Source: Camellia lanceoleosa (taxonomy: Eukaryota > Streptophyta > Magnoliopsida > Ericales > Theaceae). Taken from it: 64,000 nt of DNA. Each line of letters opens with the position of its first letter. Within the stretch, counting starts at the first letter, position 1. The notes under the pieces are model-generated. The model saw nothing but the letters and a program-made list of their open reading frames with translations, was not told where the DNA came from and made no database searches. This document shows positions 1-60,935 of the stretch, piece by piece. Position numbers and translations under genes: made by a program. The stretch lies in contig CM045762.1 of NCBI GenBank assembly GCA_025200525.1, forward strand, positions 83,791,893 to 83,855,892. The letters are read 5' to 3'.

Positions 1-599
1 TCTTCAAGCTTGAAGGAGGAGGCTCGTTGTCCTAGCCTGGTAAGTGCTCCAAACCCTTCTTGATGCCATTTTCCCTACCATTTCACGCATTTAGGGTAGA
101 AAAGCGTAGTTTCTAAGATCTGGGCACCAAAAAACCTCCCAAAACCTTCAATAGTTCATGGTGTTCTTCACTTCCAGTGAAGAACAACGATGAACTGGGG
201 CGGACCGGGCTCCTGGTTTCCATTTGATCCTAAAGAACCACGGAACCGAGCAAATAACGTGTTTGTAGAGAATATAGTGAGAACCGAGATAGTGGAAGTA
301 CTTGGTCGTCCAGCCGGGCTAGTATCTGCTCCGTTTGGGCGACCGAGCTCTCTAGCAGCCTTAGGAACTGGGGTGGTTTGGCACGACTTTGGACCGAGCT
401 AAAGTCAAGCTTCGGTTTATGAGACCGCTCATGCTTACCCTTGCCATCCTTTTCTGCAGAGTCCAAGGGGACCATTAACCATTCTCAAGCTCTCAAGACC
501 GAGCAATCATCCAAAGGCCAAACCACAACCGCTACATTAGGATCGCCTCAAATGGGGAAATACCGCTATATGGTAGACACCGCCGCTTTAAACGCTGTC

Positions 600-2438
600 A
601 GGAGGAGTACGATCCGCCGATGTCCACCTCGTACTTGCAAATGAGCAAACAACTCCTTGGGGAAGAGCCGAGCAATGCCCTTCACCGGTGCTCTCAATGG
701 TTGAGGGAGGCCTCGCTTCCACTCAATCCTCGATCACAGAATTCTACGCCGACCGGCCGCACCAACCCAAGTGTCAACAAATACATACCGGATTATCAAC
801 GGCGTCCACGAATTAAACAACCGGCTTGGCACTCAACTAGGCTTAGCCGAGATCTTAAGGCAGTATACCATGGGCCACACCGGGGACGGTCTTGCCTACT
901 ATCTAAAAATAAGACCGGGCAAGGAGAAAATAGTGACCGGCACCCCAGATAAAGACTTGCATGATGACGACTTTTTCTGGGTGTCTGGCAACTATGAAAC
1001 GGCCGACGTACCGGGCTGGTTTATTAGCAAAAACTTTGGTAGTTCATGTAAGCCGCGCTTTCTTGCCCGGTCAATCCTCTTAACTGTTTATTCTTTACTT
1101 AGCCATTTTTTGTTTCCTTTGCAGCAATCCAGGAACTACAGGCAAATTACCAGTTCCCAAACTCCGAGTCAATCCGAACCGTGCTTCGATACAGGCACCG
1201 GGATTGTAACGAACTGCTCGGTTATCAACCTACATACAGATACTCTGCTCCCCGCCGGGGTAGAGTCACTGACTTCCTGCGCGAGCCAACTCCACCTCCA
1301 GATCCAACTTTACCTGACATCCCCTTAATCCGGCTGACCGAGGAACAGGAAATGGCCAAGCAGAGTCGAATCCGAAATTTGCTCACCTCGGTAGAACTCG
1401 AAGGCGTCCACGCTCCCTCATCCGCGCCCGGTCAATCCAGCGGCGCAGTGATTGGCCTCGCCACACTTGCAACCGGCCAACCCCGCCGAGAACACGTGAC
1501 AAGGGGTGGAAAAAGAGCTCGCCAGATCCTCACCGAGCCGTGGTCGAAGCTAAAACCGTGCAACTTCTTTGCACAAGCCAACAGACGTCTCGGCTGGCGC
1601 CCGCTGTTGAAACACCGGGGTGCTGATATCCCGGCCAACGCCTCGGTCAAAGGCGACAAGGAACATCTGTTGGCCTTCGACCTGTCAAAGGCACTCGTCA
1701 TGGCATCGACGTGGTTGGAAGTGACCACGTTCGGACACATTACCGTCAAATCGTCCGTGAAGTCAATGACCAGGGTAAGCACCAAAACCAATTCCCAGAA
1801 TTTTCCAAGTGTTTGCCCGGTTTCTTTGCTGATCAAGTTTTTCTCTTGCAGGCCATCCAAAAACAGCACCTCGTGATGGAGCGCATCCACCGACTTAGGC
1901 AGAGGGCAACCGATCTGACCACCAAGTTGAGAGCCTTGAGAATTTGGGACGGGCAAAGGCATCTTTTGACCGGGCTAGCACCGAAAACAACAGACTGCTC
2001 GGCCAGCTGAACGAGGCCGAGAAGAAACGAGATGAACTCCAAGCCGAGCTTAATCTTGTTGAAAGAGTCCAGGTAAAGATGCGAAGATGCCAACAATGCA
2101 GGGCTTCAAAGAAGTGAAGACAACTACAAAAGCGGTGTCTTTGCTACCAGACATATACTTCTGGCCTACCGAAGGAAGCTTGCCCTAAGCCCGGCCAGGG
2201 CCCTGAAACCGATGTGTTTGCCTCCACCCCAAAGGCCTTTCTGCCGGTCTACCTTGTGCCTTACGCTAACGACGTCTTCACTGCGTTGCAGGCAGAGGTC
2301 GAGGAAGAGCTTGCTAGAGAGACGGCGGCCGGCGCCGCTGAAGGAAGCGACCGGCGAGAATGTCGAGAATGAGTTGATCAAGAGAGGAATGCACCGGTCA
2401 ACATTGAAGACGAATTTGACCTCTCCCCCCTTGCTTAG
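600..2438 (+). pseudogene. Antisense additional ORF of the Tat element, spliced, Transposase_28-like (copy 1)
   Basis: This gene-like unit runs opposite to gag-pol. The N-terminal part matches the other two copies in this window (18714-19251 and 61770-62230) over the pattern YR..NGVHELN.RLG..LGL, which resembles the plant family PF04195 (putative gypsy-type transposon). Three candidate introns have good borders: 1048-1124 (GTAAGC...TTTGCAG), 1775-1851 (GTAAGC...CTTGCAG) and 2073-2291. The C-terminal exons are rich in charged heptads (NNRLLGQLNEAEKKRDELQ), suggesting a coiled coil. The last exon reads AEVEEELARETAAGAAEGS and ends at a TAG at 2436-2438, with one premature TGA before it. The start of the gene is not clear; bases 1-600 may hold a 5' exon and an intron (possible donor near 40, acceptor near 176). 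Function is unknown. Confidence 0.7.
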
Positions 2439-2675
2439 TTTCTCTTTGAATTTGCTTTGTTTGTTTTTGATGTAACCGGGCTAAATACCCCACCTTTGTA
2501 CTCATTTTGAATTAATGAAAAAACTTAACTTTTGCGAAGTGTTTGCATGGTTTGCTTGAGCTTCATAAAAACATCAACTCATCGAATCGATACATCACCT
2601 CGGTTGAGAGACCAGATCATACCATCTCCAACCGAGGTAATTCATCTCGGCAAGAAATATCTGACTTGCACAAAC

Positions 2676-3120
2676 ATTAATCCATCCAACCGGACAAAAC
2701 ATCTCGGTTGGGAATCCAAAGTTGGACAAAACACCAACTCTTCCAACCGGACTAATCCATCTCGGTTGGGAATCCAAAGTTGGGCAAAACACCAACTCTT
2801 CCAACCGGACTAATCCATCTCGGTTGGGAATCCAAAGTTGGGCAAAACACCAACTCTTCCAACCGGACTAATCCATCTCGGTTGGGAATCCAAAGTTGGG
2901 CAAAACACCAACTCTTCCAACCGGACTAATCCATCTCGGTTGGGAATCCAAAGTTGGGCAAAACACCAACTCTTCCAACCGGACTAATCCATCTCGGTTG
3001 GGAATCCAAAGTTGGGCAAAACACCAACTCTTCCAACCGGACTAATCCATCTCGGTTAGGAATCCAAAGTTGGGCAAAACACCAACTCCTCCAACCGGAC
3101 TAATCCATCTCGGTTGGGCA
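2676..3120. repeat. 58-bp tandem repeat, about 7.5 copies
   Basis: The unit (for example starting at 2732 and again at 2790) is 58 bp and nearly identical between copies; the first and last are slightly diverged. Each unit holds CCAACCG and CGGTTGG about 13 bases apart, so each could fold into a small hairpin. The array lies between the 3' ends of two convergent reading directions: the antisense ORF ending near 2438 and integrase ending at 3238. Tandem repeats in the region 3' of pol are known in Tat/Ogre-type elements and can seed satellite DNA. Confidence 0.95.
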
Positions 3121-3237
3121 TGCTTAATTTAAACAAAACATCAAATTACGAAGGCAAAGAACACTTGTATATATTGACAAAAAAGAATTACATTCTGAAG
3201 TGTAATGCAAAAAACTCCTTTGCGAACCAAACAAAAG

Positions 3238-4441
3238 CTAGAAATAGTACACTTTGAGATTGGCCGCATTCCATGGCCGAGGTATTGATCTACCATCCAA
3301 GTCCTCCAGGTGGTATGCCCCCTTGCCCGCCAGACCGGTTATCTTGTATGGTCCTTCCCAATTTGCCCCTAGCTTGCCTTCTCCTGGCACCAGGGTATTT
3401 CCCATAACTTTCCTCAGGACCCAATCACCCACCTTGAACAGTGCAGGGTGCACCATCTTGTTGTACTTCTGGAGAGTTCTTCTTTGGTAGGTGCCACATG
3501 GATGAGAGCCTTTTCCGGCGCTCTTCACCTGAGTCTAATTCGAGCGATAGCCTCGGTGTTGAGCAGCTCAAAGCTTTCACTCGAGGGTAGGCATGCCGAC
3601 TTCAAGGGAATGATCGCCCATGCCATAAGCCAAAGCGAATGGAGTTTCCAGAGAACGCCATGGGTAGTCCAAGATGCCCAAAGGACCTGGAAGTTCCTCG
3701 CCCACTTTCCTTTGCCTTTTCCAACCTTTTCTTTAACCCATCCAATATAATCTTGTTCGACGCTTCGACCGTTGGATTTGGGTGGCGGAGTGGAGTTGTA
3801 GAATTCAATCTTTAAATCTTCACAAAAACCTCTGAATAGGCGACAAATTGGGTGCCGTTGTCAGAAATCAAGATCTTGGGGACGCCAAACCGCGTTACCA
3901 CATTCTGCCAGACAAACCTCTTCACGTCTTTTTCCTTGATAGTTGTCAAAGGTTCGGCCTCAACCCATTTGGTGAAGTAGTCCGTCGCCGCGATAAAGAA
4001 CTTGCGGTTGCCCGGTGCAGTTGGGAGGGGTCCCACTATATCTAGCCCCCACATCGCAAAAGGCCAAGGGCTGGTGAGGGGAAGAAGTTCTCTGGCCGGC
4101 TGGTGGATCTGGTGTGCAAATTTCTGGCACTTCTCACATTTCCGGACATATTTTTGCGCGTCAGCTTGCATGTACGGCCACCAATAGCCTTGTGAAATAG
4201 CTCGGTAGGCCAAGGATCTGCCCCCGGTGTGGCTGCCACAAATGCCTTCGTGAATTTCGTGCAAAAATGCATCCACACTGCTCGGGTGCACACACTTTAA
4301 GTAAGGACCAGAGAAGGACTTCTTATACAACGCGCCAGATGGAGAGAGCCAAAACCGCTCTGACTTTACTCTAAGATTTGTGTGCTTCCTTCTTCTCGGT
4401 TGGTAGAATCCGTCTCGGAGGAACAAAATGATTGGATCCAT
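3238..4441 (-). pseudogene. Integrase domain of the Tat pol polyprotein
   Basis: On the minus strand from 4441 the frame shows an HHCC zinc-binding segment (HEIHEGICGSH ... CEKCQKF), then the DDE core with WGLDIVGPLP and LISDNGTQF; the third acidic residue is seen in a shifted frame as PTVEASNKIILDGLKKRLE (3602-3808). The C-terminal domain (3238-3528) contains GANWEGPYKITGLAGKGAY, the GPF/Y-type motif of Ty3/gypsy integrases, and the polyprotein ends at a stop at 3238. At least two frameshifts, near 3812 and between 3528 and 3602, break the frame. The enzyme would insert element cDNA into the genome. Identification is firm; function of this copy is lost. Confidence 0.92.
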
Positions 4442-4452
4442 CCACGACGGAC

Positions 4453-4930
4453 CTAGCTCGGCGCAGCAGTAGTACTCCGCCCGGTATCTTCAATGCTTGG
4501 TCGTGGAAGAAAGTCAATTAACAAGGGATTTGGAGACGTACTATCTACCATCGATGCCAGGCCGGCCAGCTCATCAGCTCGGCTGTTTTCTTCTCGGCCG
4601 ATCTGTTGGACTCTGATTGCCTGAAACTGCTTGAAGTGTTCCCTGACCAGAGCTTGGTACTTCGCCATGCGGTCATCTTTTGCCTCGTAGATCCCAGAAA
4701 CTTGGTTAACCACAAGTTGGGAGTCACTGTACACCATTAGCTCGGCAGCCTTCAACTGGATTGCGCTCTTGAGCCCGGCCAGAAGGGCCTCATACTCAGC
4801 TTCGTTGTTAGATGCTGGGAAGCCAAGGGTGATAGAATGTTCAATGGTTAGGCCATCTGGGGAGATAAGAACAATGCTCAAAGACCAAGTGACGATTGGA
4901 CGCCCCGTCAACAAAAAGCTTCCACATGTC
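4453..4930 (-). pseudogene. Second (archaeal-type) RNase H domain of the Tat element
   Basis: The frame ending at 4453 contains [34 protein letters not shown] and [16 protein letters not shown], the acidic and His/Glu/Asp motifs of the additional RNase H typical of the Tat lineage. It lies between the first RNase H and integrase, as expected. Near 4905-4945 the segment encoding WKLFVDGA has a short direct duplication (the run AAAAAGCTTCCA occurs twice), which damages the beginning of the domain. Confidence 0.88.
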
Positions 4931-4934
4931 CCCC

Positions 4935-5395
4935 ACAAAAAGCTTCCAGCAAACTGATGGATCCTACGAGTGGTGAGGGGTACTATGATCAAGGTTGCTC
5001 GGCCGTCCGGTTTCAAGTTCTGCGCCATCGCCCCACTCCGCCCTTGGTGATTCGGCACCGGACTCAGCAAGTCGGTCTGCCACGCCTAAGTCCGTAGGCG
5101 AATCACCAGGCTGCGGTATTATGCCGGCCGCAGGCTCTGTGCTGAGTAGTTCCATGACTTCCCCCCGTGGTGATGCGGTACCGGGCAGAGTTGGTGGAAT
5201 AACAACACCCAACTCTGTTATCGCGTCACCGGTTGTTGAAACTGTAGAAGTGTTGGCCACTGCGGTGGTGTGCACTAAATCCGCGCCGCGAACCCCACCA
5301 AGTGGTAATATCTCGGATGAACTGGCGCGCACCTCATCATCTGCCGTGGTAATATCGACCGGGCATACCGGATGAGTGCGGTCTTCAGAACGAAG
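4935..5395 (-). other. Low-complexity spacer between the two RNase H domains
   Basis: About 460 bases separate the first RNase H (ending LADFVLKTAL, then out of frame) from the WKLFVDGA start of the second. The minus frame 4964-5332 stays open for 122 codons and is rich in Gly, Ala, Pro, Ser and Thr without a motif I recognise. GC content is higher than in the flanks and the opposite strand is also open (4995-5375). It may be an expanded linker or a captured segment. In typical Tat elements these two domains are joined by a shorter linker. Confidence 0.5.
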
Positions 5396-5802
5396 TCAGC
5401 CAAAGTTTGGGCTTTGATGGCAGTGCGCGGCTGATATTTCACATCAAACTGCCCCAACTCGACCGCCCACTTAAGAACTCGCCCAGAAAAATCCGCCCGT
5501 TCAAATAAAGCTTTGAGGGGGAACTCGGTCAAAACGACGATAGTATGGGCATGAAAGTAGTGCGCCAAGTTTCTGGATGTCATCATTAATGCCAAAGCAA
5601 GCTTTTCAAGAGGCGGTACGGTCTCTGCGGCGATAAAGTCTTCACGACATAAAAGATGGGGAGGTGCTTGATTCCTTCGGCCGAACAAGCACCGCCTTGT
5701 GCATGTTGCGACACGCGGATAAAGATAAAGTTCTTCTCCGCACGGCGTGACTAACAATGGTCTCAAGACAAATATTCTTGAGCTCGCCAACGCCGGTCGC
5801 AT
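5275..5802 (-). pseudogene. First RNase H domain of the Tat pol polyprotein
   Basis: The minus frame contains LEKLALALMMTSRNLAHYF, TIVVLTEFPLKALFER and GRVLKWAVELGQFDVKYQPR, followed by KAQTLADFV, the usual sequence at the RT-linked RNase H of Ty3/gypsy elements. The upstream part (5700-5870) that would carry the RT thumb and connection is out of frame. The frame runs past LADFV into a sequence unlike the family (to 5277), marking a frameshift. Confidence 0.85.
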
Positions 5803-5872
5803 TCTTCATCCCATGAGAACTTGGACTTCAAGGATCGAAGAAAGGACGGCAATGATCCGATGACCTCATCGA

Positions 5873-6908
5873 TTATAAAGCGATACGCGCGTATTCCGCC
5901 AAATCTTTGACGTCTTTCACCGAGCTAGGCTGCTTTAACTCTTGTACGGCTCTGATTTGTGTAGGGTCCGCCTCAATGCCTCGGTTTGTGACTAAGAATC
6001 CTAAAAATTTCCCGGATCCCACAATCAAGGCACACTTAGACGATTCAGCGTAACTTATGCTTCTTGAGGATGGCAAACATCTCGCTAGGTCGGACAAATG
6101 ACTTGTTTGTTTCGCTTCACCACCATGTCATCAATGTAAGCCTCCATTGTCCGCCCAAAGAAAGGAGCAAACATCTTGGTCACCATCCTTCGAAAGTTGC
6201 CCCGGCGTTCTTTAAACCAAAAGGCATAACGCGGTAGCAGAAGAGTCCCCTTGGTGTAGTGAATGAAGTGATTTCTCGGTCGGGGCCGTGCATGGCAATC
6301 TGATGATAACCCCGGTAAGCGTCCAAGAAACTTAGCCTGTCATGGCCAGCCGTCAAATCCATAAGCTGGTCAATTCTAGGCAAAGGAAAACTGTCTTTCG
6401 GACAGGCACGGTTGACGGTCTTGTAATCGACGCAAACCCGCCATTTCCCATTCTTCTTCGGTACAACGACTGTATTTGAAATCCACCGAGGATAGTGGAC
6501 CTCCTGAATTGCTCGCGCCTCGAGCAGATGCTTGACTTCCTCCGCCACTACCTCGGCGTGATGCAAAGCTGACCTCCTTGTTCGCTGAATGACCGGCTTT
6601 GCTCCGGGGAAGACATTGAGATGATGGCAGATAAAGTTTGGATCGAGGCCGGGCATGTCATAAGGCGACCATGCGAAAACTTCAATGTTGGCCATAAGGA
6701 ATTCCACTATCTCGGTCCTTTCTTGTGCTGTGAGGGAGGAGCCGAGCAAGAAGAACTTGTCCGGCTGCTCGGTATCAATTCGCACTTCCACCAATCCTTC
6801 CACGGCTTTGTCTTCTGCCTTAGTGCCCACATCGTCTAGCACTACCAGGTCCTCCGGTCCCTCAATCATCTGAACAAATCCCTTGGCAGCCGGCCCATTG
6901 ACCGCCAC
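5873..6908 (-). pseudogene. Reverse transcriptase domain of the Tat pol polyprotein
   Basis: From 6908 the minus frame reads through the RT fingers and palm: ARAIQEVHYPRWISNTVVVP, KKNGKWRVCVDYKTVNRACP, DRLSFLDAYRGYHQIAM and CYRVMPFGLKNAGATF. The catalytic YIDDMVVK box follows at about 6117-6150 in a different frame. Another piece (5873-6097) carries FLGFLVTNRGIEADPTQI. Frameshifts near 6180 and 6097 separate these parts, so a full enzyme is not encoded. The N-terminal stretch with EIVEFLMANIEVFAWSPYDM is the usual junction between protease and RT in this lineage. Confidence 0.93.
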
Positions 6909-7006
6909 AAAGCAATTGTTTTGACATAACTTGATCGCCTCAATTTCCTCAATCGCCCCTATAACCGAGGGAATCTGATCACTTGGTTAAAGGTTGATGG
7001 CACGGC

Positions 7007-7741
7007 TCACATAGCATGAAGCCGACCGCCAAGGATCAGATTGTAAGTAGATGGCACCTGCAATACCCAGAACTCAACCTGTTTGACCACTGATCCCGCT
7101 TTAACCGGCAGGATAATTTTTCCCAAAGGCCACTCCGGTTGCGAGTTGAAACCGACCAATGGCGAGGTTGCTGGTGCCAAATCCGTATCTCGGAGTTTGA
7201 GCTGTTTGAAAGCGTCGTAATACATGATCTCGACCGAACTTCCCTGATCGATCAAGATCCTTTTAACTTCGAAATCATTGACGCGGAGAGTTACTACCAA
7301 GGCGTCATTGTGCGGTGTCTGGATGCGCTCCAGATCCTTTGAGGAAAAGCTGATTACATCCTTTACTTCCGTCTTCCCCCTTTTGAGCGCAGGCTGAACT
7401 GACAAAACTTCCCTCATGTGTTCTGCCTTCTTAATCATGCCACGAAGCTCGCAAACACGCGCCGGTTCCACTATGCCGTGGATGACATTCACAACCCGTT
7501 GTGGAGGTACATCGCGGTCATCCGGTCCTTGAGGATCAATCGAACTGATTTGCCTTAACTCCTCCATCAATGTAAAGGTCCGGATGCCCGGTGCCACTAG
7601 CTCTTCTAGGTGTTGCCTCAAAGGCGATCCTCTCGTTGATGTACGTTCGGTGGAAGGTACAGCGGTACTTGGCATTGAAGCCTCTTCGCGTCGCCCTAAC
7701 TTAGCGAGGAAGCGGACGTACTCCTCGTCCACGGATTTCAC
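7007..7741 (-). pseudogene. Aspartic protease region of the Tat polyprotein
   Basis: The 244-codon frame contains VVTLRVNDFEVKRILIDQGS followed by SVEIMYYDAFKQL: the DQGSS box is the Tat-type variant of the retropepsin active site. Downstream PSTYNLILGG matches the hydrophobic-hydrophobic-Gly motif of the protease C-terminal half. The frame ends at 7007, just before the junction to the RT frame. It would cleave the Gag-Pol precursor. Confidence 0.88.
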
Positions 7742-8013
7742 TAAGTATCACGATAGATTGGAATTTTGAAGACCGTGGTGATGCTGTTACGGCTTTCAAC
7801 CTTACACTGCATCAGCCACATCATCTTGGGGTAGTCATCCGGCGGTAATCATTCTGTTATTACGCGCTCCTGCCGGTTCTTCGGTTTGAACCTCGGTCGA
7901 CTCTTATTTCGGTCACTAAATCGGCGGACTCTTCGACCGCAAGCACTTTTCTGCCACCCTCTTGGGTGTGACGGCCAAATTTGCCTTCTCGGTTGAGGCC
8001 GAGGCATCATCCT
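7742..8013 (-). pseudogene. Decayed gag C-terminal region between gag and protease
   Basis: The minus strand between the two open frames has several stops in all frames. A stretch reading VEDDASASTEKANLAV can be seen near 7960-8010. No intact CCHC zinc knuckle is visible. It links two frames that would be continuous in an active element. Confidence 0.6.
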
Positions 8014-9240
8014 CTACCGGATATGCTCATTGATCTGCCGCATAAAACATCCCATGGTCGTAGGTTGTTGCATGGTAAGTGAGTCTCGCAGTCTATGTCC
8101 GACCGGGAGCCCACGCTTATACTGTACGATAGCAAGGTTGACCGGGCAGTCCAGTATCTCATTGAATGTCTCCCAATACTTGGAGTTGTACGCCTTGAGT
8201 GTGTCGCTCGGTTCCATCTTGATACTCAGGAGGTGATCCACTTCCTTAGGAGTTTTGGTGTTAGTCGTGAAGCGCGTTACGAAGGCTTCTGCCAGCTGTT
8301 GCCACCTCTCAATACTCCCCTCCGGTAGCCTTCCGAACCACTTTAATCCCAATTCGCCCAAACTCGACGGAAAGATAAGGCACATAAGAGCATCATTCCG
8401 CCGGTGTCCGGCCATAACCTGTCGGAAATGACTTACATGCATGTACGGATCGGTTTTTCCATCGTAAAGGGTAAACTTTGGCTGGTGGAATCCCGCCGGA
8501 AGCGGCGCTGCTTCTATCTCCAGTGAAAAAGGAGTGGCGCTCAACCTGGCCAAATCTGTATCTAGAAGGAGTGGCGCCGCTTGACGCGGTGGAGGCATTC
8601 CGACCTCCTCGCTGGCGTGGGCTCCGTAGGATAACCGCTGGAACGCCGGCACCCTCTGAGCTTCCCGCCGGCGAGCCCATTCCTTTAGAACTGTCCGCAA
8701 ATCCTCTGTACAGGCGGAATAGGAATACCCCGACGTCGTCTCCGGACGTGAGGGTCTGTAAGTGCTATCTTGCGCGCTGGACTTCTCTGCGTGCAAGTCG
8801 GAATCACCATCTTTGTAGCTCCTGGTAATAGAGATTGCCGGAGTGTGCCTCTGACTCTGGCTGGCTGAACGGCGGGAGGGGGCTGAACGGCGGGATGGGG
8901 TGCGCTCACTGTGGTTACCCGCTCCAGCTACACCCTTCCCTTTATAACGCCGCTTGAGCTCCTCCATCTCTGCCGCCATTCGCCGGATGACGGCATCTTG
9001 GTCCCGCAACTTGTGTTCCAGGCGTTTGGAGTGTGACTCTCTCCGCCGTCGGTGACCGTCTGGGCTACGGGAACGGCCATGACTTCTTCCGCGCTTATCC
9101 CGCGCGTCTCCCGCCTGTCCTCCGGTGGCTGTCTCCAGGTTCGCCATCGGATGGATGGACGGGAGTCCTTCTCTCTGCCGGACAAACTCCGGGGTGGCTC
9201 CGTCGACGGCGGACAACGGAAACTCCTCGTTGTGCGCCAT
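8014..9240 (-). pseudogene. Gag of the Tat element, N-terminal 408 codons open
   Basis: The ATG at 9240 is 46 bases inside the primer binding site and is supported by a homologous start in the small element at 23106 (shared spaced pattern VR.R..LP.I..MA.L.T.T, then SP.GRHR). The middle is a basic, coiled segment (RRRRESHSKRLEHKL). The C-terminal part holds the plant retrotransposon gag domain (PF03732-like): FTLYDGKTDPYMHVSHF, then GLKWFGRLPEGSI and FVTRF. The frame stops at 8014 within the gag C-terminus. Gag would form the intracellular particle that packages element RNA. Confidence 0.92.
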
Positions 9241-9286
9241 GAACGACGATCAGATGAACCCAGAAGACAAGGTTTTATCTGCAAGC

Positions 9287-9304
9287 TTCCCACAGACGGC
9301 GCCA
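9287..9304 (-). promoter_or_regulatory. Primer binding site of the Tat element, tRNA-Asp-like
   Basis: On the minus strand, two bases inside the LTR, stands TGGCGCCGTCTGTGGGAA. The first nine to ten bases fit the 3' end of plant tRNA-Asp, the usual primer in this group. The same site, mutated, stands at 23041-23058 in the small element. Confidence 0.85.
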
Positions 9305-9306
9305 AT

Positions 9307-10038
9307 TGTACGGGGGGAAAATATTCCGGCAAGCCCGTACTCCTTTCTTCCGAGCTCCGTTTTTGTCCGATCACCTGAAAGCACAACGGGGGTGAGCTAC
9401 CCGGCGGTGTGTGGCCGGAAAACACCTCCGACGCTCAAGTTAGAACCTCACACACCTGGAAAAATGACTAGAGAGAAGGGAGAGTGTTTGAGTGTAAGTC
9501 TTACTTACAAAAATTGTCCATCCCCCAAAGGGGTGGCGCAGACTTGCTTATATACCTCCCTGCGCCTCACATCCACTCCCAGTGATCTCTCAACACGTGG
9601 CTCTGCTATCCCATCTGTCAGCACATACACCATGCCTCCGTCAGGTCACGCCATGCTGGACATCACCTAACCCCAACTACCAGCCTTCTCTGCTGGAGCT
9701 CGGCAGCCGAGCTGCCCAATCCATAGCCGGGCTGTGCTTCACGCCCAAGCACGATGCTGGCTAAGCTTGAGAGAACCGGGCTGCGCTTCATCTGCTTGCC
9801 CGGTCGGTCTTCCTGCCGAGCAGCAGAACACCTCGGTCGTTGGCGCCTTTCCGGGCTCCGGATTCTTCAGACTGCTGGGCTTGCTTGCATCCGAAGCACG
9901 CAACTCGGTTCACCCCATCGATGCCCTAACCGAGCACCTTCTTGGCCTAGTACCTGCTCGGCCCAAATCTTGCTCGGCGTAACTCTGTCCGGCCAAATCT
10001 GTTCGGCACGGTACCAGATCATTATATTCCCACTCACA
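9307..10038 (-). repeat. LTR (5' LTR of the minus-strand Tat element)
   Basis: The inner edge is TGTACGGGG at 9307 on the plus strand (ACA at the LTR 3' end, minus strand). The outer edge is CCCACTCACA near 10036-10038, giving a TG...CA LTR of about 730 bp. The LTR start (TGAGTGGGAAT on the minus strand) resembles that of the small element at 22169 (TGAGAGGGGAAT). A minus-strand TATATAAG stands at 9547-9554 and would drive the genomic transcript. The exact outer base is uncertain by two positions. Confidence 0.85.
9547..9554 (-). promoter_or_regulatory. TATA box in Tat LTR
   Basis: TATATAAG on the minus strand, about 240 bases from the LTR inner end, is well placed for the retrotransposon promoter. 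Confidence 0.6.
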
Positions 10039-28073: not shown

Positions 28074-28181
28074 GACCCACTCAGATTGCAAATTCCATCA
28101 ACAAACCCGAAATTCCTCAAAAACCTCTCATATCAGTTACTCGAAGATCATTAGCAATTTAAAGGAAGAAGAAGAAAAAAG

Positions 28182-28448
28182 ATGAGTTCGGCAAGCAGAG
28201 CTTGGATTGTGGCAGCAAGCGTTGGGGCTGTGGAGGCACTCAAAGATCAAGGGTTCTGTAGATGGAACTATGCCATGAGATCCATACACCACCACGTCAA
28301 GAACAACGTGAGGGCTTACTCTCAGGCCAAGAAACTGTCTCCCTCGTCTTCCGCCGTGGTTTCGAGTAAAATAAGAGAAGACAAGGCAAAGCAGGCAGAG
28401 GAGTCTCTCAGGAAAGTTATGTACCTGAGCTGTTGGGGTCCCAATTGA
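28182..28448 (+). CDS. Wound-induced protein family member (DUF3774-like), copy 1
   Basis: The 88-residue intronless frame matches the plant wound-responsive family (PF12609, DUF3774): N-terminal [20 protein letters not shown], then [10 protein letters not shown], a Lys/Ser-rich middle and the invariant C-terminus MYLSCWGPN. Full length for the family. The N-terminal hydrophobic stretch (residues 8-20) is too short and uncharged at its edges to be a clear signal peptide. The start is the first ATG after a leader of about 100 bases, and a TATA box stands at 28066. It is 77 of 88 residues identical to the protein at 54638. Members of this family are induced by wounding; the biochemical role is not well established. 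The frame is intact and probably expressed. Confidence 0.93.
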
Positions 28449-30107
28449 ACCCCTCTACCCAAATCAAAAATGAATTGATCTCTCTTTTCTCTCTCTACCT
28501 ATTAGATGTAGTAGTTTGAGAAATTTGATATTCCGACGTTAGATCGGAAGAAGAAGAAGAAGGTGACTGTATATATTGTAAAGTTTAAAGCCTGTTGCTC
28601 CATAATGGAAAATTCATATTTTGGTTCCCATTTTTCACTACAATGTTTGCTGATTTTTTTTTTTTTTTAAATTTTATTTATTTATTAAATTTTATGCGCA
28701 TAAAATTATAAAATTAGTAAATCACATTAACGCAGATAATATATATATTTTTAATTATAAAAATATGAGAAATGCAAGTGAATCTGAGGTAGAGAAAACA
28801 AATTATAAAAATATGAGAAATGCGATGAATCTGTGGTGAAATGTAAGTGCAAGTGAAAAATTATGGAAATTGCATCCTTCCATGTTTGTATATATTTTTT
28901 CTTTATCCAACTGTCCCAACTCAGGGTAGTTGTCAAACAAATTAATAAGTTTAGATGGTGATTTTTAACCAATAATTTATTTATGAGTAATGATTAAATA
29001 AATATATAAAAAAAAATTATACCAATAATTCATAAAGAATGAAGTGGTATATGAGTCTATTCATTTAAACCGAAAATTTTAAAATGTCATTTTCATTTTT
29101 GTATAAATTTTTTTGGTTGTAAAATATCTTTCTTTAATTATGTGGCCAATTAAAGGTACAATTTTTTAAATTTCATTGTCATTTTTGTATGAATTTTTTT
29201 TGTTTGTGAATCATTTTTCTTTAGGGAAATTTTTTTTTTTTGTTTTAATCTCTTTTGTTAAAATTTTATAATTTAAAGGATATGACATATTTTCATATGT
29301 TGGGTTTCTCTCTTCTTTATTTATTGGTCTAGTGATGAGGCAGGTTGAGTGTAAGCTATGTTTGTTTGGGGATTTATCAATGTTATCTTTCTTGAGATTC
29401 AGAAGGTTTGGTTTGTGTTTCTGAAAAAAATTTCAGAAATTTTCTCTACAAACAAATTTCAGAAATTTTCTCTACCAAACAAATTTTTCCAAAATTTTTT
29501 TCCAAAACACACAAACCAAACAAGTTTTCCAAACAAATCTCTCTCACACACACATCAAATCAATCACTTTTTCCAAAACTCTCTCTCAAAACAATTTTCC
29601 AAAACAAATTTCCCAAAAAACCAAACCAAACATGTTTTCGTACTTTTTATCTCTAAAACACATCTCTCAAACACAAACCAAACATACCCTTCATTTTCTT
29701 CGTAAAAACTAGGGAGATTCAGAAACTTCATTTTCTTAATAAAAACTAGAGAGAATTAAAACGAAGCGGATTTTTGAAAAGGGTAATTTTTTTTTAAGGT
29801 CTTTGGTTTTAAAAAATTTTAAGATAAAAGAGATGTAATATTTTCATAGTAGTTTGGGTTTCTTAATATTTTTTTGAAAAAATTTTAATTCAGAGAAATT
29901 TTAAAATATAGATAAATTTTTCTAGTTTGAAATTTTTCTGATTTGTTCACAAATTTGTTTGATTTGCTCATAATTTTTTCTGTGTTTTGACCAATTTTCT
30001 TTGTGTTTATAAATTTTTTTGTTGCAAATATGATCAAAATTTTTTTACTATTTGCTTCTCACAAACATAACAACAAACACCTTCAGTGCATAATCAAACA
30101 GACTAGG
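28449..30107. other. 3' flank of wound-protein gene and AT-rich intergenic DNA
   Basis: No gene is seen. Bases 28780-28850 hold an imperfect direct repeat (AAATATGAGAAATGC twice). 29400-29700 is a low-complexity series of AAACAAATTT and CTCTC units. 29780-30060 is related to 20740-21075. Confidence 0.55.
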
Positions 30108-54516: not shown

Positions 54517-54637
54517 GAGAGCACTTCATAGTTCCATAATCATCATCTACTTCATACCACCAACTTACTTTAAAAGAGAAAAGAAAAAAATCTCTCTAAT
54601 TCACTGCAAAAGTGATCAGATCGTCAAGAAAAAAGAG

Positions 54638-54904
54638 ATGAATTCGACAAGCAAAGCTTGGATTGTGGCAGCGAGCGTTGGGGCTGTGGAGGCCCTCAAA
54701 GATCAGGGATTCTGTAGATGGAACTACGCCATGAGATCGATACACCAGCACGCCAAGAACAATCTCAGATCATACTCTCAGGCCAAGAAACTCTCTCCTT
54801 CGTCCTCCGCCGCGGTTTCAAGTAAAATAAGGGAAGACCAGGCAAAGCAGTCGGAGGAGTCTCTCAGAACAGTCATGTACTTGAGCTGTTGGGGTCCCAA
54901 TTGA
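54638..54904 (+). CDS. Wound-induced protein family member (DUF3774-like), copy 2
   Basis: This 88-residue intronless frame is a close paralogue of the gene at 28182 (77 of 88 identical). It keeps [28 protein letters not shown] and the C-terminal MYLSCWGPN typical of the plant wound-responsive family (PF12609). Changes are scattered and mild (for example R6K, V39A, V43L, K78T), as expected under selection. Leader and 3' region can be aligned with the other copy over short distances. Expression on wounding is expected from the family but cannot be read from the sequence. Confidence 0.93.
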
Positions 54905-55923
54905 ACCCCCCCAAATAAAAACGATTCATCTCTCCTCTCTGTACCTATTTGATGTAGTTTTGAGAAATTTGTTATTCCAAGGTTTGATCGGAAGAAAGAT
55001 GACTGCATTGTACATATCAAATTTGGATTACCATTTTTCAACACAATATTCGTTCTTGGATTACACTACTATGTGAAGACATTTATGGACTGAAAATTTT
55101 TAAATCAAATGAAATTCTATGTGAAGAACGAGTAATAAGACTTGACTGATCATCTTGTTTAACATCGATGAGTCAAATTCACATAATTCTTTTGTTATCA
55201 TCAATTTATTTATTTTTTCTTTTATCTGCGCGAAAAATTGAAGCAATTTTTTGTTTTTTTGAAACAGGATAATTTATAAATAGTGTCAATTTTGATTTGT
55301 TGAATTTGACATACTAATTTCAGCTGTGAAGTTAGAAAAGTTGCGGTCATTCCCAGTAAATTGAAAGATGGGCAAATTACCCTGAGGTTTGAAAATGGTG
55401 TATTTTATTATCCCAATAACTTTTAGATAGATTTAAACCTCCCATACTCATTTATCTTTTTCTTATTCCTTACACCTTTTTTTTTCTTCTCTGTACCTCT
55501 CTTTCTCAGATATTAGCCATGCCCATGCCCACCCGCGCCTTCCCCCCCTTTTTTCTTTTTTTTTTTTTTTTTTTTTTTTTTTTCTAATTTATAGTCACCG
55601 GCGACCACCATTTATTGAGGTTTACAGGCAATCTCCGCGCACCAATTCCTTACTTCGTGTTCATCGACGACGAAAGAAATAAGTTTCTGACGAAGAAGAT
55701 GAGTAAATATACTCAAATCTGATGTAGATCGAGCTAGATTTAAACCAAAAAATAATTGTCGGAATACAAGTATCTCTCTATATCTATCTCTTTCATTTGA
55801 TCTATCAGTTTTAATATTATTTTTTTTGTATTGTACACTTCTATTTTCTTGTTATAATAGAGAATATTTTCAAGTTTTGAACAAGTTGTTTTTGAGTTTT
55901 AATTACGGACGATGAAAACTGTA
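54905..55923. other. 3' flank of wound-protein gene, no gene
   Basis: Contains a T-run at about 55555-55583 and AT-rich sequence. Nothing coding is recognised. Confidence 0.5.
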
Positions 55924-56504
55924 ACAGTTTTAGTTTTTTTTGTGCTGAATTGAATAATTTTTTAGAACTGTAAAATTTTACAGTTTCATAACTTTCTTTA
56001 GAACTGTAAAATTTTGTAAGTTCATAACATGTTTTTCAGTTTGATTAATAAAGATAAATACCTATCTGGTCATACTTTGAAGCGTAACATTTTATAGTTT
56101 CAAAACTTGTTTTTCAATTTGATCAATATTAGAAATTATTTGCTTAAATTCTACAAAAATTAAAAATAACATATGTTTTTTTTCATTGCTACTATTTGTT
56201 GTTCTTAGGTTTTTTTTTTTTCCTTCTTCTTTCTGTTTATTAATATTTAGCACATTTTACTATATTTTTTCACTTTAATTTCTTAGTTTATTCTTCTTAT
56301 TATTTTCGGTAATATTCTAGACATTTCAGTGAGTATTCGGCGATATTCTTGACATCCAGCGAATATTCTAGACACTCTGACGACTTCTAGTAACGTTCAA
56401 AACATTCCATCGATACTCCGACAAATTTCCGCTGATATTTGAACCACTTTCTGGTAATATTCAGGCGAGTCTCTGATGATCGTTTGACAAAAGTCCGACA
56501 ATAG
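55924..56504. repeat. Direct repeat flanking the virus-like segment, left copy
   Basis: About 581 bases nearly identical to 58905-59487 (for example TTCATAACTTTCTTTAGAAC, ATTCTAGACACTCTGA.GAC). At its right edge the 12-mer GTCCGACAATAG is present twice. The sequence is AT-rich and non-coding, and its ends are not LTR-like. Confidence 0.93.
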
Positions 56505-56515
56505 TCCGACAATAG

Positions 56516-57339
56516 TAACAATATTTCAGTCTACAATTCAAATGCGCGCTTACAATCGATTTCGTGCGACATTCCCACACAAAATAACAAATAATTGCGT
56601 TTTTTACAATATTATTGTACGCGCCATTCAATTGGCCTAAACTATCTCGGAATTCGGATACAACATTCTTTCCGATGTTGATAAATGTGTTAACGCCTTG
56701 ACGGCTAACAGCTGGATATTCATTCGATTGCGGCGGCATTAAAACGGGGACACGCCGCAATACAACAAAACGGTCTATTTCTGTGCCCCTTACCATACAT
56801 CCAGTTCGTGGGTCACCACTGGACCACAGAAATACATCTTCAAACTTAGGCGTATCTGCGACATTAGGAAACGGTCGACAGCGACAAATTCACATTGACC
56901 ATTGTCAAATATACGAGATGGATCAATGGCCACAGTTTGTTCTGATGCGAGTAGGGGCATCACGCATGTCGCTTTCGAGGCGGTGTATCGGCAACAACCG
57001 GAGACCACCGGTTTGGCGTAACACTACACCCTGGATATAGAGCGATAATAGCTTCAATTTCCGGGATAGTCGTTCATCCCTTTCAGTGCCAACCTCTGGC
57101 AAATCAAAATGAAAAAAATGAGGCTCATCATACGGGATAAAATCATCAATCCTCCAGATGGAATCACACAACGATTTAGACACAAATCGTTTTTTTTTGT
57201 AATAACTTTGTTTCCGTAGTTTAAAATATCTTCGACCGGAAACACCAGATCTGCTCGAGGTTGTCCAACGGCGACTAAAATTTAGTTTAGTTCTGGCGGT
57301 GTATGGACCCCGTTGTGAAAAACGGAAAGTAGTCGCCAT
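56516..57339 (-). pseudogene. Geminivirus nuclear-shuttle-protein-like remnant (BV1-like)
   Basis: From ATG 57339 the minus strand encodes about 275 codons spread over three frames, with shifts near 57000 and 56795. The N-terminus is rich in Arg, Lys, Ser and Tyr, like the nucleic-acid-binding and nuclear-targeting end of the BV1/coat family. The last part, near 56530-56640, carries NNIVKNAIICYFVW, which fits the C-terminal core of that family. The final codons run directly into the host repeat at about 56515, so the C-terminus is truncated or fused. In the virus this protein shuttles viral DNA out of the nucleus. A coat-protein origin is the alternative. A TATA box (minus CTATAAAATA) stands about 45 bases upstream. 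The copy cannot make a working protein. Confidence 0.68.
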
Positions 57340-57986
57340 AATCGATGATGGAACCCCACCATTAAATGCATCACATCGATTTTATTTTATAGGCGTAATA
57401 TGTTGACCGTGATATGGGTCAACATGAACAGGTGAAAGTATATAAATAACTGTTACTGTATAACGTATGGCCATTATTAATCACATATCACAAACGATGC
57501 AGAAACACCACCATCGTGGGCCATACGTATGTTAACTGTTCACCTTTTCGCTTGCGCTTCCCTTTAAATTTAAATTTCCCGCTTGCGCTTGCCTTTTTCG
57601 ACTTTTAATCCTGGCCGCAGATCTGGGCGCGGAGCGGAGACACTAGCCGACAACACGCCTCAAAATGCGGAAGGGAGCACCAATCAGGGGATGACACGTG
57701 GCGCGGGGGGCGTCGGGTAATATTAGTGGGGCGCTCACACCTATAACTCACTCCTAACTCTTTTCCACCAAGATAGTTTTGGGAGAGTGACTTGCGTCAT
57801 CCAGAGAGTTAGTGGCGTCATAGAGTGAGTTATGGCATCAATGCGACGTCGTTTTAGAGTCATCGTTTTAAATTAATTATTCTCCCAACTCTGTGAAACG
57901 GGATATATAAGAACATGAATTAGCCATTGATGCCCCAACTGAGAATTGTGTGTCTGACAATTCTAACATACCGCTGCGCTATCATA
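57340..57986. promoter_or_regulatory. Virus-like intergenic region between divergent frames
   Basis: About 650 bases with TATA boxes facing both ways (minus near 57380-57392; plus TATATAA at 57904-57910), a G-box-like CACGTG near 57696, and an inverted repeat ATAACTCACTC / GAGTGAGTTAT (57743-57753 and 57823-57833). The GC content is well above the flanking host DNA. Confidence 0.65.
57717..57725 (-). promoter_or_regulatory. Geminivirus-type origin nonanucleotide
   Basis: TAATATTAC on the minus strand, flanked by GC-rich sequence on both sides as at a rolling-circle origin. The flanks do not form a good stem any more, so the hairpin has decayed. Confidence 0.65.
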
Positions 57987-58740
57987 ATGTCTGAAGAAAT
58001 ACAACAAGCCGATCTTACAGATAGTCTCCATGAAAATGAAGAAGGAGATTTGGAAACCCAAATCATAGGCGACATCAAACTTACGGTATCCAACATACCA
58101 ATAACAAATCCAAAGATAGGCGTGCGGTGTGGCGAAAATCACATTCAAGTCGATGATTATTGACAAATGCAAGTTAAGCTCTGAGCCACAATGTCCATTT
58201 AATTCTCTTGGCGCGTCGAAGTGGAAATCTGAGACCTGCGATTCTGGCGGACGATCAATTCTGAGCCCGCTTTACATTTCGATTACATGCCGAGACATCA
58301 CATATTTTGGAAGCGCCTATCTTTGCAGATAAGAAAGGATGCCCATGGACGGCGTCGTACAAATTGCTACAAACAAACATCAGCGATGATGTGAAATATT
58401 GCAAAATGAAAGCCACATTGGCTTTCCAAACATCATCGTTCGGATGAAATTACTTATCGTCGCCATTAATAAGCTGTTTTTGTCCAAGGTATTCAATAAC
58501 AGCCACGTGGATATTTGGCACGTGGAGCGGAAAGTGGCGAAGGCAAGACTAACACGCTCAAATTCCGAATCACATTTTCGATCCACAAAAACATTGTCAG
58601 CACCGATGGGCCAATACGGTTCATCGGCCCAAAGAATAATGGTGGCGAATGTCGACAAGTTCAATTCGGGATGGGCACGGATCATTCGATCGGTAGCGAC
58701 TTAATTTTGCCGACCCACAGCCCATCAATAATCAACACTG
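57987..58740 (+). pseudogene. Geminivirus movement-protein-like remnant (BC1-like)
   Basis: The plus strand from ATG 57987 holds about 240 codons in several frames: 57987-58163 (stop TGA), then 58129-58332, a short piece near 58340-58440, and 58440-58704. Signature-like stretches are ITCRDITYF, CPWTASYKL and NNSHVDIWHVERK in the order expected for the BC1 movement protein of bipartite begomoviruses. In the virus it moves viral DNA between cells at plasmodesmata. At least three frame changes make this copy dead. The 3' part forms one arm of an inverted repeat. Confidence 0.65.
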
Positions 58741-58861
58741 GGCCAATTAATCAGCCTAACGGCAAAATTAAGTCGCGCTGACTGAATGATCCAGGCCCAT
58801 CCCGAATTGAACTTGCTGACATTCGTGCCGCCATTATTCTTTGGGCCGATGAACCGTATTG
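58612..58861. repeat. Inverted repeat within the movement-protein-like remnant
   Basis: Arm 58612-58712 is the reverse complement of 58760-58861 at roughly nine bases in ten, with a 47-base loop. The first 31 bases of the left arm match without a difference. A transcript on either strand could fold into a hairpin of about 100 bp. Confidence 0.92.
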
Positions 58862-58904
58862 CCCCCGGGATGAAATTACTTATCTCACTTTCCGGTAAAA
58901 TTTT

Positions 58905-59487
58905 ACAGTTTCAGTTTTTTTTGTGCTGAATTGAATAATTTTTTAGACCTGTAAAATTTTACAGTTTCATAACTTTCTTTAGAACTGTAAAATTTTGTAA
59001 GTTCATAACATGTTTTTCAGTTTGATTAATAAAGATAAATACCTAATACAGTCATACTTTGAAACTGTAACATTTTATAGTTTCAAAACTTGTTTTTCAA
59101 TTTGATCAATATTAGAAATTATTTGCTTAAATTCTACAAAAATTAAAAATAACATATGTTTTTTTTTCATTGCTACTATTTGTTGTTCTTAGGTTTTTTT
59201 TTTTCCTTCTTCTTTCTGTTTATTAATATTTAGCACATTTTAATATATTTTTGCACTTTAATTTCTTAGTTTATTCTTCTTATTATTTTCGATAATATTT
59301 TAGACATTTCAGTGAGTATTCGGCGATATTCTTAATATCCAGCGAATATTCTAGACACTCTGATGACTTCTAGTAACGTTCAAAACATTCCATCGATACT
59401 CCGACAAATTTCCGCTGATATTCGAACCACTTTCCGGTAATATTCAGGCGAGTCTCTGATGATCGTCTGACAAAAGTCCGACAATAG
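58905..59487. repeat. Direct repeat flanking the virus-like segment, right copy
   Basis: Nearly identical to 55924-56504. It ends GTCCGACAATAG followed by unrelated host sequence. Confidence 0.93.
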
Positions 59488-60935
59488 TGGGATGTAGAAG
59501 CATCTTTAATTTTTTTTTAAATGATTTTTTGGTAACAATTAAAAATATATAAGAATAATTTGTGCAAGTATTTTGTTTTGGAATTATATGAATTTTAAAT
59601 TTTGTGTATGAGACTTATTAGTAAAGTTTGAAAGATTTAGATCACGCCAAGTTAAAAAATAATTTATCCATCTATTTCTTGGGATTTTAGAAAATAATTT
59701 AATTATATATATATATCTATATATATGTTTAGAGTTAATTACCAAAAATTTCTATTTATAAATGTTATGGCAGCTCAAGTACTATTTAAGATATTTTAAA
59801 TCAATAAGTTTTATTTAATAAAATTGAGAATATTATCAGTTTATCTCAATTTTTAAAATCAAAAACATTCTTGATTTTGTATAGTAATGCTTCAGATAAT
59901 TGTTTCACTAACTAATGAAAAAAAAAGCATGAGAATAAACCTTTTTCCCTTTCTGCTTATTGGTTTGATTCAATTATCCAATAAAACAGAGAATATTATC
60001 ATTTTCTTTTCAGTTTTAAAAGTGAGAACATTATCAGTTTATTCATTTTTAAAGTTTTTTTTTACACATCAATATTTTATCATCATACTCCTTTATAGAT
60101 ACAAATTTTTTAGTTTTGCACAAAAGGATAATTCATTTTTTTTTAATAAAAAACATATTATTTTTTTTTCCATATATATATATATATATTAGTTTTATCA
60201 ATTTAAAAGTTGATATTTTACCGTTTTGAAAATTAAAATAAATGTCAAATTATCATGTTCTTTCATAGATAATCATAAATGATAGCCCATCATTGTTTGA
60301 AGGGTAATTTCGACTATTAAAAATTTAGTGGGACTTAAAAGTCCAAAAAATCTTAGTTAAGACTTAATGGAGTATAAGTTCATAAATTAGGACTTGTGTG
60401 TAAATATCTATTTTTTTATTTAGGAAAATTAGTAAAAAAAAATTCTTTCTAACTTTGGGTAGTAAGAGATATTCAATATATTTTTTTCTTATTAATTAAG
60501 GTTTTTTAATAATATTATTAGAGAGATTTCATTTTATCACAGAGAAATTTTAGATCGTCCAATTTTTGACTAATTAAAATTTTTCTGTAAAAATATTGAG
60601 GGATTGCAACTATTTTGACAAAGTTACATATTTTTTTATCTAACAAAATTCTAATATCAAATACCTTAAATTAAAATTTTCTTTTTAATTTAGCTTTCCA
60701 TTCTTGAATGAAAAGCATGTAAAATGGTGCTATACAACTATTAGATGATAGGTCACTAGTGGTAACTTTGATAAAAAATAAAAATAAAAATAAAAAAATA
60801 ATTATTTCTCACTATGATTGTTTTTTAATATACAAATGGACTTGTTTATGTTTTATCATTATGAGTTATTTCTTTAAAATTTTCGAAATTGAGATTCATT
60901 GATTTGTATTTAAAATTTAATTTCAAAAATATCTC
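59488..60935. other. AT-rich stretch without a gene
   Basis: Long T and A runs and (TA)n at 60171-60189. The 101-codon frame at 59887-60192 is mostly Phe, Ile and Tyr from T-rich DNA and is not a gene. Confidence 0.6.

What the first reader, a model, noticed from the sequence alone, without database searches (positions are those of the whole stretch)
56516..58904. Endogenous begomovirus DNA-B-like sequence in a plant chromosome
Seen: two divergent decayed frames, one with features of the nuclear shuttle protein and one of the movement protein, separated by an intergenic region with TAATATTAC on the correct strand, in a segment of about 2.4 kb. Known: most endogenous geminivirus sequences I am aware of come from the Rep-bearing component; DNA-B-derived genes in a host genome would be rare. 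Inferred: an ancient bipartite geminivirus infected the germ line of an ancestor of this plant.
Basis: partly seen in the sequence, partly recalled or inferred. Interest (0 to 1): 0.92.

Follow-up and report, generated by a model that had tools for sequence, protein, structure and literature searches.

The report
Broken geminivirus DNA-B in plant chromosome
A plant chromosome carries the broken remains of what looks like the second DNA circle of a geminivirus related to one named from Camellia oleifera, flanked by a long direct repeat and apparently stitched in by DNA repair; it is a clear viral fossil of a kind already known, with an unusually complete layout.

Summary
Between 56515 and about 58760 lie two divergent, broken genes. 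The minus-strand frame matches Pfam Gemini_coat/BR1; its closest named relative is the nuclear shuttle protein of Camellia oleifera geminivirus. The plus-strand frames match Gemini_BL1 movement protein. The region between carries TAATATTAC on the shuttle-protein strand (chance about 0.006), three iteron-like 21-nt repeats and a TATA box, but no stem-loop around the nonanucleotide. Of 141 window frames of at least 76 aa, one matches Gemini_coat, one Gemini_BL1, none Rep. A complete wound-induced-protein domain lies about 1 kb upstream, so the setting is a plant chromosome.

The repeats may be a duplicated host target or the terminal redundancy of a circle of about 2.98 kb. If they arose at integration, the event is about 1-2 million years old.

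Novelty is limited: endogenous geminiviral elements, including putative shuttle proteins in Camellia sinensis and yam, are published. Host species, virus genus and spanning reads could not be tested.

The parts
55924..56505 (+). left copy of the flanking direct repeat
   Evidence: 96.6% identical to 58905-59488 over 585 columns; 16 substitutions in 580 aligned bases, 5 indel events; alignment
56492..56516 (+). end of the left repeat doubled (11-bp unit) at the junction with the shuttle gene
   Evidence: TRF period 11 at 56486-56516; exact 14-bp matches
56515..57339 (-). broken shuttle-protein (BV1-type) gene; start codon at 57339-57337 inferred
   Evidence: PF00844 match; tblastn of P0001-P0005 in frames -3 and -2 over 57245-56515; part before 57245 supported only by the open frame
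57340..57986 (.). intergenic region
   Evidence: lies between the two divergent genes
57717..57725 (-). TAATATTAC nonanucleotide, without a stem-loop
   Evidence: negative for a stem
57783..57841 (+). three iteron-like 21-nt repeats (76% and 71% identical to the first copy)
   Evidence: tandem repeat of period 21
57904..57910 (+). TATA box-like TATATAA ahead of the movement gene
   Evidence: read; function inferred
57987..58759 (+). broken, 3'-truncated movement-protein (BC1-type) gene; part before 58265 inferred from position
   Evidence: PF00845 matches of two frames; P0006 in frames 2, 1 and 3 from 58406 on
58760..58876 (-). inverted copy of movement-gene DNA 58593-58712
   Evidence: protein match on the minus strand
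58868..58884 (+). 17-bp patch identical to 58442-58458 of the movement gene
   Evidence: 0 of 2000 base shuffles of the junction stretch reached 17
58886..58898 (+). 13-bp patch identical to 59428-59440 inside the right repeat
   Evidence: 0 of 5000 base shuffles of that 14-nt stretch reached 13
58905..59488 (+). right copy of the flanking direct repeat
54518..54901 (+). context: host frame with a complete wound-induced-protein domain (DUF3774)
   Evidence: PF12609, E 9.7e-37, profile 1-80 of 80

Best explanation
This is an endogenous, non-functional copy of a geminivirus DNA-B-like component, related to Camellia oleifera geminivirus, in a plant chromosome. Shown: frames of both DNA-B-type genes, their divergent layout, the nonanucleotide, the frame changes, the plant surroundings, the flanking direct repeat and the patchy right junction. 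Inferred: viral DNA in the nucleus of an infected germ-line ancestor was captured while the plant repaired a staggered double-strand break; filling in two offset ends duplicated about 585 bp of host DNA, one copy on either side; template-switching end joining stitched the right viral end with copied patches (an inverted movement-gene piece, then 17 and 13 bp); afterwards the genes decayed without constraint. Today it most likely makes no protein; a role as a source of small RNA is conceivable and untested. I hold the identity (endogenous DNA-B-like copy) at about 0.95; the figure given is for the identity together with this origin of the repeats.
For: Family matches to both DNA-B-type genes and named or BL1-type relatives. 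Nonanucleotide on the expected strand, chance 0.0056, and iteron-like repeats between it and the TATA box. Both genes change frame within their matched stretch. Host domain about 1 kb away and retroelements in the window. The viral DNA fills the interval between two copies of one repeat. Repeat GC 0.27 against 0.43-0.44 for the viral parts and 0.34-0.38 for 4.5-5 kb of flank, falling to about 0.20 just right of it. Patches copied from neighbouring DNA at the right junction.
Against: No copy of the repeat without virus could be shown: it occurs only twice in the window and the own-genome search did not complete. The repeat-plus-virus unit of 2983 bp is close to the 3059-bp contig of the relative, which suits a circle. 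The inverted patch differs from its template more than the two repeats from each other (11 of 115 against 16 of 580, p 0.002), as if older; leaving out the 6 changes that touch CG sites the difference is not significant (p 0.36). CpG content does not decide. The break-repair papers I had in mind are not held, so that comparison is recalled.
Confidence: 0.55

Rival explanations
1. The repeat belongs to the integrated molecule: a circle of about 2.98 kb (DNA-B with a long AT-rich stretch, either its own or captured host DNA) went in as a copy of about 1.2 units, so its ends repeat. The patches formed when the circle itself was rearranged.
For: Order and orientation of the repeats fit a permuted circle. 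Unit length 2983 against the relative's 3059-bp contig. Virus-host hybrid circles with AT-rich beet DNA exist (PMC6293997, passages); yam and tobacco elements occur as tandem units (PMC5014472, passages).
Against: Repeat GC 0.27 against 0.43-0.44 for the viral parts. The movement-gene end that should precede the repeat is missing and rearranged. The beet hybrid circles were about half genome size. What the 3059-bp contig contains beyond the shuttle protein was not seen.
Confidence: 0.3
2. The host already had two tandem copies of the 585-bp sequence and the virus inserted at their boundary.
For: The repeat holds short tandem units itself.
Against: It needs an insertion exactly at the unit boundary; no further copy above E 1e-5 was found in the window, and a low-stringency search gave only short or AT-rich partial matches.
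Confidence: 0.1
3. Assembly artefact: reads of a virus present in the sample were joined into a plant contig.
For: Raw reads could not be inspected.
Against: Frame changes in both genes and truncation of one, which a replicating component would not be expected to tolerate; the two repeat copies have diverged by 16 of 580 sites.
Confidence: 0.03

Closest known systems
Camellia oleifera geminivirus (taxid 2713609, unclassified Geminiviridae)
   Same: Its record holds a shuttle protein (P0004) 81% identical to the window's C-half frame in alignment A4, and a 30K movement protein of it is used in PMC10306228 (passages).
   Different: Known here only from proteins; its DNA is not held, so genome layout and the repeat could not be compared. 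The window copy is broken.
Endogenous geminiviral sequences of Camellia, yam, tobacco and others (PMC7758297, PMC5014472)
   Same: Decayed geminivirus DNA in plant chromosomes. PMC7758297 reports putative shuttle proteins in Camellia sinensis and Dioscorea alata and shows BC1 in a figure of Camellia transcripts (sections 19 and 23 read; passages).
   Different: That survey was anchored on Rep; this locus shows no Rep match in its 64 kb among frames of at least 76 aa. The flanking 585-bp repeat and patch-filled junction were not among the passages I saw.
Begomovirus DNA-B
   Same: Shuttle gene on the TAATATTAC strand, movement gene on the other, intergenic region between with iteron-like repeats.
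   Different: No stem-loop, genes broken, movement gene truncated, genus not tested.
Olea europaea geminivirus DNA-B (PMC8000510)
   Same: A bipartite geminivirid outside established genera with a BL1-type movement protein (passages).
   Different: Its movement protein is in virion sense and its second gene shows no similarity to known proteins; here the begomovirus orientation holds.

Membership tests
Endogenous geminiviral element | geminivirus-derived coding sequence | tested here: met
   PF00844 and PF00845 matches, named relative
Endogenous geminiviral element | host chromosomal DNA on both sides in the assembly | tested here: met
   wound-induced-protein domain to the left; plant retroelement frames in the window; the right flank to 64000 gave no strong family match
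Endogenous geminiviral element | single reads crossing the junctions | not testable with these tools
   no reads held
Begomovirus DNA-B | BV1-type gene on the strand of TAATATTAC and BC1-type gene divergent on the other strand | tested here: met
Begomovirus DNA-B | nonanucleotide in the loop of a GC-rich stem | tested here: not met
   DNA fold z +1.22, 181 of 200 shuffles at least as stable; at most 6 of 11 pairs in the arms
Begomovirus DNA-B | common region shared with a DNA-A | not testable with these tools
   no DNA-A partner available; own genome not searchable
Begomovirus DNA-B | placement inside the genus in a tree | not tested
   no named begomovirus proteins were fetched
Camellia oleifera geminivirus | close relation of the shuttle protein | tested here: met
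   81% in alignment A4; P0005 from an unnamed sample is closer, 88%
Camellia oleifera geminivirus | same genome layout and nucleotide sequence | not testable with these tools
   its DNA was not found in viral contigs
LTR retrotransposon (for the flanking repeats) | TG...CA termini and a short target-site duplication | tested here: not met
   termini read; the flanks share only AT-rich words of up to 7 bp

The most novel reading that the evidence does not exclude
The locus records the return of a virus-host hybrid circle to a chromosome: a DNA-B molecule that had picked up about 585 bp of host DNA integrated as a terminally redundant copy about 1-2 million years ago, leaving a datable fossil both of a bipartite geminivirus outside the known genera and of virus-mediated movement of plant DNA.
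Probability: 0.12. Interest if true: 0.7.

Novelty: new member of a known kind. Interest (0 to 1): 0.42.

Why it matters
The large published survey I read in part was anchored on Rep (PMC7758297, section 19), so loci holding only DNA-B would be missed. This one shows that a DNA-B-like insertion without a Rep match nearby can keep parts of both genes and the intergenic region in order, a possible fossil calibration for bipartite geminiviruses. The flanking duplication and patch-filled junction make the way viral DNA was captured directly testable at one locus.

Tried and rejected
LTR-element reading of the direct repeats: rejected, no TG...CA ends or convincing target-site duplication. CpG content as a test of host versus viral origin of the repeats: inconclusive; the 13 CpGs lie in the repeat's second half and 22 of 310 GC-matched windows elsewhere (overlapping, 50-base steps, two places) reach the same ratio. 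Structure prediction of the shuttle-protein frame: useless (mean pLDDT 33.7), so no fold search was run. Solved-structure searches gave no geminivirus coat protein. Rfam: 0 matches at gathering scores. Four viral-contig scans found no relative. Two remembered papers on tandem duplication in plant break repair are not held. The ten paper searches listed no title or abstract start describing an endogenous locus with both DNA-B genes; most listed papers were not opened and supplements could not be read, so this is no proof of absence.

Full report
What was checked. I scanned ten stop-to-stop frames of the region, none joined or altered, against Pfam. Minus 56461-56889 matches PF00844 (Gemini_coat/BR1, E 3.2e-6, below the curated bit cutoff). 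Plus 58265-58447 matches PF00845 (Gemini_BL1, E 5.1e-6, above the cutoff). Plus 58390-58704 matches PF00845 at 0.0024, below the cutoff. As a control I scanned all 141 window frames of at least 76 aa at E up to 0.01: one matched Gemini_coat and one Gemini_BL1, with the E-values of the two frames here; none matched a Rep family. The other matches were retroelement domains, a wound-induced protein (2 frames) and four weak ones at 0.001-0.0084 (GILT, S_4TM, SP24, ECF-ribofla_trS). The 60-aa frame 58265-58447 is too short to be in that set, and shorter Rep remnants would be missed.

Relatives. A search with the N-half shuttle frame found three database proteins on contigs of 528, 707 and 800 bp. 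A profile of these plus the window C-half frame found two more: P0004, named nuclear shuttle protein of Camellia oleifera geminivirus, on a 3059-bp contig, and P0005 on a 3838-bp contig. P0003, P0004 and P0005 pass the PF00844 cutoff; P0002 matches weakly (0.016) and P0001 not at all. The open movement frame 58390-58704 found one protein, P0006 (E 4.8e-25), a BL1 protein. By tblastn the window matches P0005 at 91.7% over 120 columns. P0003 and P0004 have N-termini unlike their relatives, so some of these may come from decayed copies; that is inference. PF00844 covers both coat and shuttle proteins: the reading as shuttle protein rests on the name of P0004 and on the BL1 gene opposite. No solved coat protein was matched.

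State of the genes. The shuttle gene is matched in frames -2, -3 and -2 between 57198 and 56515, so at least two frame changes break it. A further match to P0001 in frame -3 at 57245-57192 may reflect a shift in P0001, since the window frame is open there. The movement gene is matched in frames 2, 1 and 3 along P0006, so at least two frame changes break that part. The last third of P0006 has no collinear match in the window. The movement gene before 58265 is inferred only from an open frame whose start codon (57987) lies 77 bases beyond a TATATAA box. No protein product is expected.

Origin region. TAATATTAC occurs twice in 64 kb, both times on the minus strand, once in this intergenic region. 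A Markov model of that region gives it at 0.0056. Three 21-nt repeats, 71-76% alike, lie between it and the movement-gene TATA box, where begomovirus iterons are expected (recalled). No stem-loop surrounds the nonanucleotide, so that defining feature is not met, and I file the copy as DNA-B-like rather than as a begomovirus DNA-B.

Surroundings. A complete DUF3774 wound-induced-protein domain lies in 54518-54901. Reverse transcriptase frames of two types lie elsewhere in the window. The host is therefore a plant. Camellia is likely from the virus relative, but the species was not identified: the own-genome search did not complete (14 calls, listed in Tried and rejected).

The flanking repeat and junctions. 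55924-56505 and 58905-59488 are the same sequence (96.6%; alignment) and abut the viral DNA on both sides. At the left junction the last 11 bp of the repeat are doubled. The right junction is a chain: an inverted copy of movement-gene DNA (58760-58876), 17 bp identical to 58442-58458, and 13 bp identical to a stretch inside the repeat. An 18-bp match at 58895-58912 is weaker evidence, because the repeat's own start contains that motif more than once. Base shuffles reached 17 bp in 0 of 2000 and 13 bp in 0 of 5000 trials; these shuffles keep base counts only. Such patches are known from template-switching end joining in plants (recalled; the papers I tried are not held).

Age. The repeats differ by 16 substitutions in 580 bases, K2P 0.028, about 1.1 to 2.2 million years at recalled plant rates of 1.3e-8 to 6.5e-9. 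This is valid only if they arose at integration. The inverted patch differs more from its template (11 of 115, p 0.002); six of those changes touch CG sites, and without them the difference is not significant (p 0.36). Methylation-driven mutation may explain it, or the patch may be older than the repeats.

Target duplication or circle. The repeat's low GC and the ragged right end favour duplicated host DNA. The unit length of 2983 bp, near the relative's 3059-bp contig, favours a circle integrated with terminal redundancy, possibly a virus-host hybrid like those seen in beet (PMC6293997, passages). CpG content does not decide. I put 0.55 on capture with target duplication and 0.3 on the circle.

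Novelty. Endogenous geminiviral DNA is widespread. Sharma et al. report 997 and 1,037 predicted Rep proteins in two Camellia sinensis varieties and putative shuttle proteins there and in yam (PMC7758297, sections 19 and 23 read), and a figure legend of theirs labels a BC1 movement protein in Camellia transcripts (passage). Their survey began from Rep, so a DNA-B-only locus is a useful addition but not a new kind.

Noticed in passing
P0004 (database protein): The Camellia oleifera geminivirus shuttle protein is annotated at 203 aa with an N-terminal stretch unlike that of its relatives. The record may be truncated or may itself derive from a damaged copy.
   Followed up: no
54626-54996 and 28169-28552: The stretch holding the wound-induced-protein domain has an 86% identical second copy in the window; two of 141 frames match that family.
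   Followed up: partly
2685-3118: Tandem array with a shift of about 58 bp, up to 98% identical between copies.
   Followed up: no
1-10000: GC of about 0.47-0.57 against about 0.3-0.4 in much of the rest, with reverse transcriptase and integrase-like frames: a retroelement-rich stretch.
   Followed up: no
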